From: Albidovulum sp. | GTDB lineage: Bacteria; Pseudomonadota; Alphaproteobacteria; Rhodobacterales; Rhodobacteraceae | Assembly (NCBI RefSeq): GCF_008933605.1 | Contig: NZ_WBUS01000015.1 | Span: forward strand, 1 to 41,770 | Length of the DNA: 41,770 bases | Direction: 5' to 3' | Shown: piece after piece, positions 19,597 through 22,382 of the stretch | How the letters are laid out: each line of letters opens with the position of its first letter | Numbering within the stretch: the first letter of the stretch is position 1 | The notes under the pieces: generated by a model | The model's database searches: none | What the model was told of the DNA's origin: nothing | Seen by the model: only the letters and a program-made list of their open reading frames with translations | Program-made: the position numbers and the translations under genes

Positions 19597-20106
19597 TTAG
19601 CCACCGGTGACCAGCGTCCACCAGATCTTGCCGCCGGGCTCCTGGAACCAGGCGAAACCGACATCCCGCGCGGCGGGATCGAGGATGACCGCGCGGGTAT
19701 CGGGCAGTTCCATCCAGGCCGAGAGGGTTTCCAGCTCGGTCTCGTACGTCTCGGAGATGTTCTCGCCAAGCATCCGGCCCTGATAGCCGGTCCGCTGGGC
19801 GCGGAGCAGCGGCGATGAACCGTCGGAGCCGAAATGCCATGGCCGGTTCTGCACTGCCATGTCGCGCGAATGGGTCGCCGCCGCCGCCGTCAGGAGGGGG
19901 TTCAGCGTGAGCGGCGCGGCGCCCGCGGCGGAGCGCAGGGAGTTGATGGAATCGACCATCGAGTAGGTAATCCGACCCTCATCTCCCGCCTTGATCACGT
20001 AGGCCTGCGGCAAGGGCCGGCCGTCTGGGCCAAGCTGGGGCGGTGTCGCCACACAGCCGGCAAGGGTCAGGGCCGCGGCAAGGCTCAGGATCAAGAGACG
20101 GGTCAT
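19597..20106 (-). CDS. CAP/SCP-domain putative lipoprotein
   Basis: Lipobox LTLAGC; MVDSINSLRSAAGAAPLTLNPLLTAAAATHSRDMA...MLGENI CAP signature. Confidence 0.88.
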   Translation of the reverse strand: MTRLLILSLAAALTLAGCVATPPQLGPDGRPLPQAYVIKAGDEGRITYSMVDSINSLRSAAGAAPLTLNPLLTAAAATHSRDMAVQNRPWHFGSDGSSPLLRAQRTGYQGRMLGENISETYETELETLSAWMELPDTRAVILDPAARDVGFAWFQEPGGKIWWTLVTGG

Positions 20107-20221
20107 CTGGGAACCTTCGGGTTTTTCGCAGGCCAGTCCTTTACAGCCTCGCCCGCGGGTGTTCAAACGCCAACTTGCGCGTCGGCGGCAGGGCGCAACC
20201 CTCGGGTGACACGAGAGTGAA

Positions 20222-20326: not shown

Positions 20327-20935
20327 ATGAGCATCAAGAATCCCCGCGGCCTCAGCCGCCGCACTCTCATCGGCACGGCCGCGGCCGCCGTCGGAAGCGC
20401 ACTCGCCGCGCCCGCGCTCGCGCAGAGCGGCGCCGGCACGACCGAGTTCGAAAACGACCTCAACTCGAACATCCGCCGCAACATATCGAGCTTCCGCTCG
20501 TTGCAGTGGCAGCCCTATTTCTCCGATACCAAGAACGGCGCCGTTCTCGTCGACACCACCTCGCGGGCCCTGCACTTCTGGTCCGAGGACCAGGGTGTCT
20601 ACCGCCTCTACCCGACGAGCGTTCCCCTGACCGAGGACCTGACGCGCCGTGGACGCACGGCGATCGTGAAGAAGGTGATCGGGCCGGAGTGGCGGCCGAC
20701 GCCGGCGATGAAGGTCCGAAACCCGGAATGGCCCGATTATGTCGGCCCCGGCCCCGACAACCCGCTTGGAACCCACGCGCTTTATCTTTCGTGGGAGTTC
20801 TACCGCATCCATGGCACGCATGACACGCGCAAGATCGGCCGGCGTTCGTCCAATGGTTGTATCGGGTTGTATAATGAACACATTGCCGAGCTTTATTCGC
20901 TGACGAATGTGGGCACGCAGGTGTTGCTAATTTGA
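20327..20935 (+). CDS. L,D-transpeptidase (YkuD) family protein, Tat-like signal
   Basis: SRRTLIGTAAAAVGSALAAPALAQ; HGTHDTRKIGRRSSNGCIGLYNEHI active site. Confidence 0.92.
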   Translation: MSIKNPRGLSRRTLIGTAAAAVGSALAAPALAQSGAGTTEFENDLNSNIRRNISSFRSLQWQPYFSDTKNGAVLVDTTSRALHFWSEDQGVYRLYPTSVPLTEDLTRRGRTAIVKKVIGPEWRPTPAMKVRNPEWPDYVGPGPDNPLGTHALYLSWEFYRIHGTHDTRKIGRRSSNGCIGLYNEHIAELYSLTNVGTQVLLI

Positions 20936-21018
20936 CGATACGGGCAAAACTTTCGTTGCGGCGAGACGGCTTCATTGCGCGAAATGTGCCATCTGGGTTA
21001 GTGGGATTCTGAGGTGTT

Positions 21019-21047
21019 TTGACTGCCGCGACGACCTCGCTTATCCA
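21019..21047 (+). promoter_or_regulatory. Sigma-70-like promoter for the 58-aa gene
   Basis: TTGACT (21019-21024) - 17 bp - TATCCA (21042-21047), about 28 bp upstream of the ATG at 21075. Confidence 0.6.
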
Positions 21048-21074
21048 TCCGTCGCGGTGAAAATGGAGAGTTAG

Positions 21075-21251
21075 ATGAAGAAGCTCGCGCTCGCCGCTGC
21101 CCTTTCGCTCGCTGCTACCTCGGCTTTCGCCGGTGGCGTGGAACCCGTCATGGAGCCGGCGCCTGTCGAACAGGCCGCGTCGTCCTCGAACGGCGGCCTG
21201 ATCGTTCCGCTGCTGCTCCTGGTGCTCGTCGCCGCTGCTGCCAGCAACTGA
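21075..21251 (+). CDS. Small (58 aa) predicted secreted/membrane protein, function unknown
   Basis: Direct translation: MKKLALAAALSLAATSAFAGGVEPVMEPAPVEQAASSSNGGLIVPLLLLVLVAAAASN*. Signal peptide plus C-terminal hydrophobic stretch; not in supplied ORF track because it is under 60 aa. Confidence 0.85.
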   Translation: MKKLALAAALSLAATSAFAGGVEPVMEPAPVEQAASSSNGGLIVPLLLLVLVAAAASN

Positions 21252-21278
21252 TTTTTCGGCTCAGGCCGAATTGGAAAG

Positions 21279-21303
21279 GGCGGTGGGGTTCCACCGCCTT
21301 TTT
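21279..21303 (+). terminator. Rho-independent terminator of the 58-aa gene
   Basis: GGCGGTGG - GGTT - CCACCGCC followed by TTTTT. Confidence 0.85.
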
Positions 21304-22382
21304 CATTTGCCGTGGGCTTCGGTCCAGCCCGCGAGGTTCGTTTCCAGCACCGCCATGAGCGCCGCGATATGCGCGTCGTCGTCATTGAGGCAGGGGACAT
21401 AGGTGAAGCTCTTGCCGCCCGCATGAATGAAGGCCTCGCGGATTTCCCCCTGGATCTCCTCCAGCGTCTCAATGCAGTCGGCCGAGAAGGCGGGCGAGAT
21501 GACCGCGATGCGTTTCTTGCCGGCCCTCGCAAGCTCGACGACATGCTCGACCGTGTAGGGCCGCAGCCACTCCTCGCGGCCGAAGACCGACTGGAAGGTG
21601 GTGTCGACCGAGCCCTCGGCCCAACCCAGCCTTTCGCGCAGGAGCCGCGAGGTCTTCTGGCACTGGCAATGGTAGGGATCGCCTTCCATCAGGTAGCGCT
21701 TCGGCATTCCGTGGTAGGAGGCGACCAGAATGTCGGGCCGGTGGTCGATGCCGGAATATGCCCGCTCGACCGATTGGGCCAGCGCCTCGATGTACAGGGA
21801 ATGGTCGAAATACTCCGGCACGATCCGCACGGCGGGCTGGCGCTTTTCCTTCATTAGCGCGCGAAAGAACTTGTCGTTCGCGGTGGCCGAGGTGGCGCCG
21901 GCGTATTGCGGATAGAGCGGCAGGAAGACGATCTTCTCGCAGCCGGCGGCAACCATGCGGCGCACGACGCTCTCGGTCGAGGGATTGCCGTAGCGCATGC
22001 AGAACTCGACCATTAACCCCTCGCCGAAGCGGAGGGACACGGCCGTGCGAAGCTTAGCCACCTGCGCCTTCGTGATCGTCATAAGCGGGCTCTCGCCCTT
22101 CTCGTGGTTCCAGATCGACTTGTAGTTGGCGCCGGAGGTGAAGGGACGCTTCGACAGGATGACGAGCTGGAGGAGAGGCTGCCATTTCCACGCCGGGAAG
22201 TCGATCACGCGCCGGTCCGAAAGGAACTCCGACAGGTACCGCCGCATCGACCAGTAGTCGTAATTGTCGGGCGTGCCGAGGTTGGCGACCAGGATACCGA
22301 TGCGCGCCCGCGCTACCGGCGGGTGATCGGCCGGGGCATGGGTCAGGCGGCCCGCTCCGGGGCGAACGATCTCGGTATCCAT
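21303..22382 (-). CDS. hemH: Ferrochelatase
   Basis: ARIGILVANLGTPDNYDYWSMRRYLSEFLSDRRVID; SYHGMPKRYLMEGDPYHCQCQKTSRLL. Confidence 0.95.
   Translation of the reverse strand: MDTEIVRPGAGRLTHAPADHPPVARARIGILVANLGTPDNYDYWSMRRYLSEFLSDRRVIDFPAWKWQPLLQLVILSKRPFTSGANYKSIWNHEKGESPLMTITKAQVAKLRTAVSLRFGEGLMVEFCMRYGNPSTESVVRRMVAAGCEKIVFLPLYPQYAGATSATANDKFFRALMKEKRQPAVRIVPEYFDHSLYIEALAQSVERAYSGIDHRPDILVASYHGMPKRYLMEGDPYHCQCQKTSRLLRERLGWAEGSVDTTFQSVFGREEWLRPYTVEHVVELARAGKKRIAVISPAFSADCIETLEEIQGEIREAFIHAGGKSFTYVPCLNDDDAHIAALMAVLETNLAGWTEAHGK

What the first reader, a model, noticed from the sequence alone, without database searches (positions are those of the whole stretch)
21019..21303. Untracked 58-aa signal-peptide/transmembrane protein gene with its own promoter, inverted repeat and strong terminator
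The supplied ORF track misses it because it is under 60 aa. The sequence gives a complete transcription unit: TTGACT-N17-TATCCA, a perfect 8-bp inverted repeat CCGCGACG/CGTCGCGG (21026-21033 / 21050-21057) straddling the -10, a ribosome-binding site, the ORF MKKLALAAALSLAATSAFAGGVEPVMEPAPVEQAASSSNGGLIVPLLLLVLVAAAASN, and a textbook terminator. Processing after AFA would leave an acidic/Ser linker plus a short C-terminal hydrophobic segment of about 15 residues. A monocistronic, probably well-expressed miniprotein of unknown role.
Basis: seen in the sequence. Interest (0 to 1): 0.62.

Follow-up and report, generated by a model that had tools for sequence, protein, structure and literature searches.

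The report
Conserved miniprotein with structured RNA leader
A tiny 58-residue exported membrane protein that standard annotation misses is a real, conserved gene throughout one large family of marine and freshwater bacteria. Its mRNA begins with a conserved folded RNA element, absent from RNA databases, that probably controls how much protein is made, and it sits beside known cell-division and cell-wall genes.

Summary
The gene is real. Members occur in 171 of 199 sampled genomes of its own family, Rhodobacteraceae, and in none of 24 genomes of other families. It evolves under purifying selection and matches no Pfam, NCBIfam or PHROG family.

The "inverted repeat" is not a DNA operator. It is one helix of a conserved 5'-leader RNA: its sequence changes freely between genera while the base pairing is kept. 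The proposed promoter TTGACT/TATCCA lies inside that RNA and is not conserved (1 and 2 of 92 leaders). A conserved TTGC-N(2)-N17-TTA element lies further upstream.

The leader occurs once per genome, ends at the start codon of this miniprotein, and matches nothing in Rfam. GAGG and CCUC segments could close an H-type pseudoknot, but they never vary, so this part is unproven.

The neighbours are dalA (divisome lipoprotein), its partner L,D-transpeptidase and hemH; dalA is the most persistent (90 of 93 loci). Most likely it is an envelope miniprotein working with the DalA/L,D-transpeptidase module, with translation set by its leader.

The parts
20975..21003 (+). Conserved promoter-like element: TTGCGC (20975-20980) and TTAGTG/GTTAGT (20997-21003); transcript start expected near 21009
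   Evidence: 68 of 92 orthologous leaders have TTGC followed by a TTA-like motif, 58 of them 17 nt after the hexamer; alignment. The start site itself is inferred.
21009..21074 (+). Structured 5' leader RNA
   Evidence: Covariance model built only from other genera has its best hit in the window at 21005-21077 (13.8 bits, next 7.5). Genus model hits 21003-21077, E 3e-10, but the window is in its training set.
21011..21015 (+). Helix P1 5' arm GAGGU (possible pseudoknot partner of 21034-21038)
   Evidence: GAGG and CCUC both present in this arrangement in 60 leaders but practically never varying, so pairing is not shown
21024..21033 (+).
   Evidence: Compensatory changes: A5 8 of 11 pairs, 35 cells against 11.9 +/- 3.2 in shuffles, 0/500; own-genus A6 18 cells against 7.6 +/- 2.1, 0/500
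21034..21038 (+). Helix P1 3' arm ACCUC, directly after the P2 5' arm; alternative partner could be the Shine-Dalgarno GGAG
   Evidence: pairing partner inferred
21050..21059 (+).
21065..21068 (+). Shine-Dalgarno GGAG
   Evidence: Sequence; GGAG within 18 nt of ATG in 92 of 92 leaders
21075..21251 (+). 58-aa miniprotein gene: signal peptide (1-19, AFA|GG), acidic/Pro/Ser linker, C-terminal hydrophobic helix (about 40-56)
   Evidence: cleavage site inferred from sequence
21272..21305 (+). Intrinsic terminator, overlapping the end of convergent hemH
   Evidence: conserved GGCGGTGG..CCACCGCCTTTTTC in orthologs
20327..20935 (+). Neighbour: YkuD L,D-transpeptidase, counterpart by synteny of R. sphaeroides RSP_1199
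   Evidence: PF03734 E 3.9e-19; within 400 nt upstream in 78 of 93 loci
19597..20106 (-). Neighbour: dalA counterpart, 169-aa CAP/SCP lipoprotein (lipobox LAGC)
   Evidence: PF00188 E 3.2e-17; synteny with RSP_1200 DalA (PMC10470522, PMC9275681); within 2.5 kb in 90 of 93 loci
21303..22382 (-). Neighbour: hemH ferrochelatase, convergent
   Evidence: PF00762 E 4.7e-104; within 400 nt in 72 of 93 loci

Best explanation
The locus is a monocistronic envelope gene of the Rhodobacteraceae. Transcription starts near 21009 from a TTGC-type promoter. The first 65 nt or so of the mRNA fold into a conserved leader: a long hairpin (P2) directly upstream of the Shine-Dalgarno sequence, flanked by GAGG, CCUC and (in other genera) UCUUGG segments that can pair in mutually exclusive ways. 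With GAGG on CCUC the leader is an H-type pseudoknot and the ribosome site is free. With UCUUGG on the site, or CCUC on GGAG, the site is masked. The leader therefore most likely sets translation of the miniprotein; the trigger, if any, is unknown. The protein is exported, cut after AFA, and leaves a peptide of about 39 residues: a Gly-Gly start, an acidic Pro/Ser linker and a hydrophobic helix that holds it in a membrane. I infer that it serves the neighbouring DalA/L,D-transpeptidase module of peptidoglycan remodelling at division, as a small membrane partner or regulator. Shown: the gene family, purifying selection, the P2 helix, one leader per genome at this gene, and the neighbourhood. 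Inferred: the start site, the pseudoknot or switch, control of translation, topology, and the DalA/LDT partnership.
For: Family and selection. P2 covariation; sliding the partner by one column cuts pairing from 96% to 33-38%. Leader restricted to this gene: 87 of 199 genomes, one hit each; 80 end at the ATG of a listed family member, one more by its listed coordinates (G075), and five of the other six lead into a family member when read. In the own genus two genomes also have one extra marginal hit each elsewhere. No Rfam match. Possible masking of the ribosome site: RNAalifold pairs UCUU.GG with the SD. Promoter. Neighbourhood: dalA in 90 of 93 loci, and it stays as the next gene in most loci lacking the ldt. 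DalA binds peptidoglycan and co-precipitates with LDT RSP_1199 (PMC10470522). CenR is reported to bind there and to control both genes directly (PMC9275681). Paralogs beside another CAP-domain gene and between murC and murB.
Against: P1 (GAGG:CCUC) shows no covariation, and flanking bases do not extend it. GAGG is kept in genera that have lost CCUC, so it may serve something else. Single-sequence folding leaves the SD about half accessible, with no clear off state. The window leader folds no better than shuffles (z -0.58). Gene neighbourhood in a syntenic region can be passive, and the loci were gathered with a query of this ortholog type. No expression, localisation or mutant data exist for this gene in the papers held (no paper names RSP_1198).
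Confidence: 0.45

Rival explanations
1. The leader hairpin is only a stabiliser or insulator of an abundant small mRNA. It protects the 5' end and holds the ribosome site open, and there is no switch.
For: P2 sequence is free to change as long as it pairs. The SD is about half accessible in single-sequence folds. No second gene in the genome uses the element, unlike most metabolite riboswitches.
Against: Unpaired blocks ACGAGGUACAGUCUUGGGUGC and CCUC are strongly conserved, which a plain stabilising hairpin does not need.
Confidence: 0.3
2. The protein is an exopolysaccharide or capsule export miniprotein, a Rhodobacteraceae counterpart of GfcA/YjbE.
For: A paralog group lies beside yjbF and yjbH genes (PF11102, PF06082). 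Same rough layout: signal peptide, Ser/Thr-rich stretch, hydrophobic segment, no known domain. GfcA is described as a short Thr-rich inner-membrane or secreted protein of unknown function (PMC8592465).
Against: No Pfam YjbE match in window or paralogs. The paralog is convergent with, not in, the yjbF/yjbH unit. The window copy has no exopolysaccharide genes beside it.
Confidence: 0.15
3. The mature peptide is a substrate of the neighbouring L,D-transpeptidase, joined through its N-terminal Gly to peptidoglycan as a membrane-to-wall tether. This is functionally like Lpp, which most Alphaproteobacteria lack.
For: LDT gene directly upstream in 78 of 93 loci. The outer-membrane proteins bound to peptidoglycan in R. 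sphaeroides are stated to be unknown, and Lpp homologs absent (PMC10470522). Cleavage after AFA would expose Gly-Gly.
Against: No lipobox, no C-terminal Lys. The anchored fragment reported in R. sphaeroides is Lys-Arg, and the mature window peptide has neither residue. The miniprotein persists where the neighbouring LDT is gone.
Confidence: 0.1
4. The repeat is a DNA operator at a promoter that overlaps it, as first read.
For: A perfect 8-bp repeat near a TTGACT hexamer in the window.
Against: The repeat sequence changes completely between relatives while complementarity is kept, which no sequence-specific DNA-binding protein would require. The hexamers are not conserved.
Confidence: 0.03

Closest known systems
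GfcA / YjbE (group 4 capsule and yjbEFGH operons of E. coli; Pfam PF11106)
   Same: Very short, signal peptide, Ser/Thr-rich stretch and hydrophobic segment; a Rhodobacteraceae paralog lies next to yjbF/yjbH
   Different: No profile match; different gene order and strand; the window copy sits with dalA/ldt/hemH
DalA (RSP_1200) / L,D-transpeptidase RSP_1199 module of Rhodobacter sphaeroides (PMC10470522, PMC9275681)
   Same: Same chromosomal neighbourhood and a similarly wide spread in Rhodobacterales
   Different: I found no mention of the miniprotein in the passages read; no sequence similarity to DalA or LDT
SAM-II and SAM/SAH riboswitches (small riboswitches of Alphaproteobacteria; PMC1273637, PMC7367207)
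   Same: Short possible H-type pseudoknot near the ribosome site (H-type fold of SAM/SAH from the PMC7367207 abstract; that of SAM-II from general knowledge)
   Different: No Rfam match; found at one miniprotein gene only; the pseudoknot helix itself is unproven here
Pos19 small coding RNA of R. sphaeroides (PMC5036791)
   Same: Short mRNA with its own promoter and terminator that encodes a peptide of about 50 residues
   Different: Different locus (cxp-fadB), RpoE promoter, not found in other species; no relation seen

Membership tests
GfcA/YjbE (PF11106) | Match to the Pfam YjbE profile | tested here: not met
   No match for the window protein or paralogs; no genome hit over the cut-off
GfcA/YjbE (PF11106) | First gene of a gfcABCD/yjbEFGH operon | tested here: not met
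   Window neighbours are ldt and hemH; the paralog is convergent with yjbF/yjbH
VirB2/TrbC pilin (PF04956) | Profile match above the curated cut-off | tested here: not met
   13.3 bits against 27.9
VirB2/TrbC pilin (PF04956) | Type IV secretion genes beside it | tested here: not met
   Neighbours identified contain none
Lpp-like peptidoglycan-linked lipoprotein | Lipobox cysteine at the signal-peptide end and C-terminal Lys | tested here: not met
   Sequence: AFA|GG, ends SN, no Cys
Lpp-like peptidoglycan-linked lipoprotein | Covalent bond to peptidoglycan | not testable with these tools
   Needs sacculus proteomics
Known Rfam cis-regulatory RNA class | Match to an Rfam family at gathering score | tested here: not met
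   window; six loci with the leader, permissive search
Structured cis-acting mRNA leader | Conserved helix supported by compensatory change | tested here: met
   P2:
Structured cis-acting mRNA leader | Consistent position in front of a particular gene | tested here: met
Structured cis-acting mRNA leader | Changes expression of the downstream gene | not testable with these tools
   Needs reporter assays
H-type pseudoknot riboswitch | Second, crossing helix supported by covariation | tested here: inconclusive
   GAGG:CCUC practically invariant
H-type pseudoknot riboswitch | Ligand binding | not testable with these tools
   Needs in-line probing
Pos19 | RpoE promoter and cxp-fadB location | tested here: not met
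   Window synteny against PMC5036791

The most novel reading that the evidence does not exclude
A family-wide, dedicated RNA switch (H-type pseudoknot against a masked ribosome site) controls synthesis of an unannotated membrane miniprotein that regulates, or is attached by, the DalA/L,D-transpeptidase machinery that joins envelope layers at division in Rhodobacterales.
Probability: 0.15. Interest if true: 0.85.

Novelty: new variant of a known kind. Interest (0 to 1): 0.62.

Why it matters
Two unnamed conserved things come together here. One is a miniprotein family in about 86% of sampled Rhodobacteraceae genomes that Pfam, NCBIfam and PHROGs lack. The other is a covarying mRNA leader, absent from Rfam, dedicated to one of its ortholog groups. 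Their place beside dalA and its partner transpeptidase gives a direct candidate for missing pieces of division and envelope attachment in a group that lacks Lpp. Both parts can be tested with simple reporters and a clean deletion in a laboratory Rhodobacterales strain.

Tried and rejected
- DNA operator or promoter reading of the repeat: rejected by comparison.
- Known protein family: none above cut-off; no plasmid match.
- Pfam YjbE in relatives: only scattered sub-threshold hits.
- Peptidase_S74 link: only one array member (L028 4965-5393) carries the domain. S74 occurs in 4 of 61 genomes, so it is not a general partner.
- Pos19: different locus and not conserved.
- All-leader alignment across divergent genera: RNAalifold found nothing because MAFFT misaligned the 3' arm, so two subgroups were aligned apart.
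- Model R1 with strict filters missed the own genus; it was recovered unfiltered and with genus model R2.
- The search for related loci with the diverse alignment A1 failed; the closer set A2 worked.
- AF2 gives only two helices at moderate confidence, so no fold search was run.
- Three attempts used wrong coordinates or terms and were repeated or replaced.

Full report
The observation. The window holds an ATG ORF of 58 codons at 21075-21251 with the stated sequence, a GGAG ribosome site 6 nt before it, and a strong terminator behind it. The terminator hairpin at 21272-21305 folds at -25 kcal/mol, z -4.4 against shuffles. The repeat is at the stated place. The promoter is not convincing on its own: it scores 8 of 12 and is not reported by the consensus scan.

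The gene is real. Searching 61 genomes with the 58 residues found members in 32, all in the window's own family and none in 24 other families. A 27-sequence profile found members in 171 of 199 genomes of the family, nearly all of different genera. Organism names from a second collection place it in Rhodobacteraceae: Defluviimonas, Rhodobacter, Tabrizicola, Jannaschia, Roseobacter and others. The consensus is MKKLALAAAL..AFAGGMAEPVMEPxPVVEExSSSxxGIxVPLLLLxLxAAAASx. Reading frames stay open at 58-67 residues. dN/dS is 0.09-0.39 for the window against its nearest orthologs, with median 0.30 over 2616 pairs whose synonymous differences lie between 0.05 and 0.6 per site. No protein family database has it.

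Paralogs. Several groups exist. The window's group lies beside an L,D-transpeptidase and hemH. A second group lies directly downstream of a CAP-domain gene and faces yjbF and yjbH (PF00188, PF11102, PF06082). A third forms tandem arrays of two to four copies between murC and murB, before ftsQ. Arrays of up to six occur elsewhere (L028), where one copy has gained a Peptidase_S74 domain.

The leader RNA. When leaders of the window's group are compared, the repeat is found nearly everywhere, but with different sequences: GCATGCCGTCG/CGGCGGTATGC, GCGTTACGTCG/CGACGTGACGC, GCCTATTGCCG/CGGCGGTAGGC, and in the window TGCCGCGACG/CGTCGCGGTG. On 22 leaders from other genera, 8 of 11 pairs show changes on both sides. 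There are 35 such cells against 11.9 +/- 3.2 in shuffles, none of 500 reaching it. Sliding one arm by a column drops pairing from 96% to 33-38%. On 15 own-genus leaders, 18 cells against 7.6 +/- 2.1, again 0 of 500; two measures that count pairs or types are not significant in this smaller set. A covariance model built only from other genera has its best hit in the whole window at 21005-21077, ending at this ATG (13.8 bits, E 0.3, next hit 7.5). This is selection on base pairing in RNA, not on a DNA operator.

Where the RNA occurs. The model hits 87 of 199 family genomes, exactly one hit each. Eighty hits end at the ATG of a listed family member. Of the other seven, one (G075) matches a member by its listed coordinates, and five lead into a member when read: L156, L157, L166, L167 and L168. 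L159 was not resolved by my filter. The genus model, which includes the window in its training set, finds the leader in 19 of 22 own-genus genomes and in none of 17 others. It is at the miniprotein in nearly all, twice in G020 where the gene is duplicated; two further marginal hits (E 0.05 and 0.08) lie elsewhere. The element is therefore dedicated to this gene. Rfam has nothing like it.

Possible pseudoknot and switch. In 60 leaders a GAGG before P2 faces a CCUC that, in the best-aligned ones, directly follows the P2 5' arm, the geometry of an H-type pseudoknot. In 22 leaders from other genera RNAalifold instead pairs UCUU.GG with the ribosome site. The two arrangements should exclude each other because the linker is too short; this is my geometric inference. 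GAGG and CCUC practically never vary, flanking bases do not extend the helix, and GAGG persists in genera without CCUC. The pseudoknot is therefore possible but not shown. Single-sequence folds leave the ribosome site about half open, and the window leader is no more stable than shuffles.

The promoter. Upstream of the RNA, 68 of 92 leaders carry TTGC followed by a TTA-like motif, 58 of them with 17 nt between hexamer and motif (alignment). In the window this is TTGCGC at 20975-20980 and TTA at 20998-21000, which predicts a start near 21009, just before GAGG.

The neighbourhood. The window order is ldt, dalA (opposite strand), ldt, miniprotein, hemH (opposite strand). It matches R. sphaeroides RSP_1201, RSP_1200 (DalA), RSP_1199 and RSP_1197 (hemH); the last assignment is from PMC3413700. 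No held paper names RSP_1198, and I could not check that R. sphaeroides itself has the gene. DalA is an outer-membrane lipoprotein that binds peptidoglycan, sits at the septum and co-precipitates with RSP_1199; the authors note that outer-membrane proteins bound to peptidoglycan are unknown in R. sphaeroides (PMC10470522). CenR is reported to bind there and control both genes directly (PMC9275681). A site resembling the reported CenR sequence lies at 20207-20221 between dalA and ldt (one mismatch; matches of this looseness are common by chance). Among 93 loci, dalA is within 2.5 kb in 90, the ldt within 400 nt in 78, and hemH within 400 nt in 72. The thresholds differ, and the loci were collected with a query of this ortholog type. 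Still, in most loci without the ldt, dalA becomes the next gene.

Mechanism. I commit to an exported membrane miniprotein that serves the DalA/L,D-transpeptidase module, with its synthesis set at translation by the leader. The protein family, selection, P2 helix and restriction of the leader to this gene are shown. Promoter use is well supported but not measured. Translational control is likely (about 0.6). The DalA/LDT partnership rests on gene neighbourhood (about 0.35-0.4). A GfcA/YjbE-like role in polysaccharide export and an Lpp-like tether are the main rivals for the protein; a plain stabilising hairpin is the main rival for the RNA.

Limits. MAFFT alignments were used for pair counts, E-values from the short calibration are rough, gene calls around loci came from my own simple caller, and no expression data were available.

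Noticed in passing
L031:6268-6459 and counterparts L025, L029, L030, L033, L039, L042, L044, L049: A second paralog group of the miniprotein lies directly downstream of a CAP-domain gene and, in most of these loci, opposite yjbF/yjbH. Most of its leaders share a different hairpin (AGCUGCC..GGUGGCU) before GCGGAG.
   Followed up: partly
L022:6223-7227, L026:6246-6741, L027:6251-6737: Tandem arrays of two to four miniprotein paralogs sit inside the division/cell-wall cluster between murC and murB.
   Followed up: partly
L028:4965-7389: Six tandem paralogs; the last carries a C-terminal Peptidase_S74 (endosialidase chaperone) domain after the membrane helix.
   Followed up: partly
L028:8326-9270 and L048:5109-5873: Polysaccharide deacetylase genes lie near two other miniprotein paralog loci.
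   Followed up: no
window 20207-20221: TGACACGAGAGTGAA, one mismatch from a pattern modelled on the CenR site reported upstream of RSP_1199, lies in the dalA-ldt intergenic region.
   Followed up: no
L126:3626-5198: Five tandem miniprotein copies in a Tabrizicola species; in my leader comparison only the first carries the conserved structured leader.
   Followed up: partly
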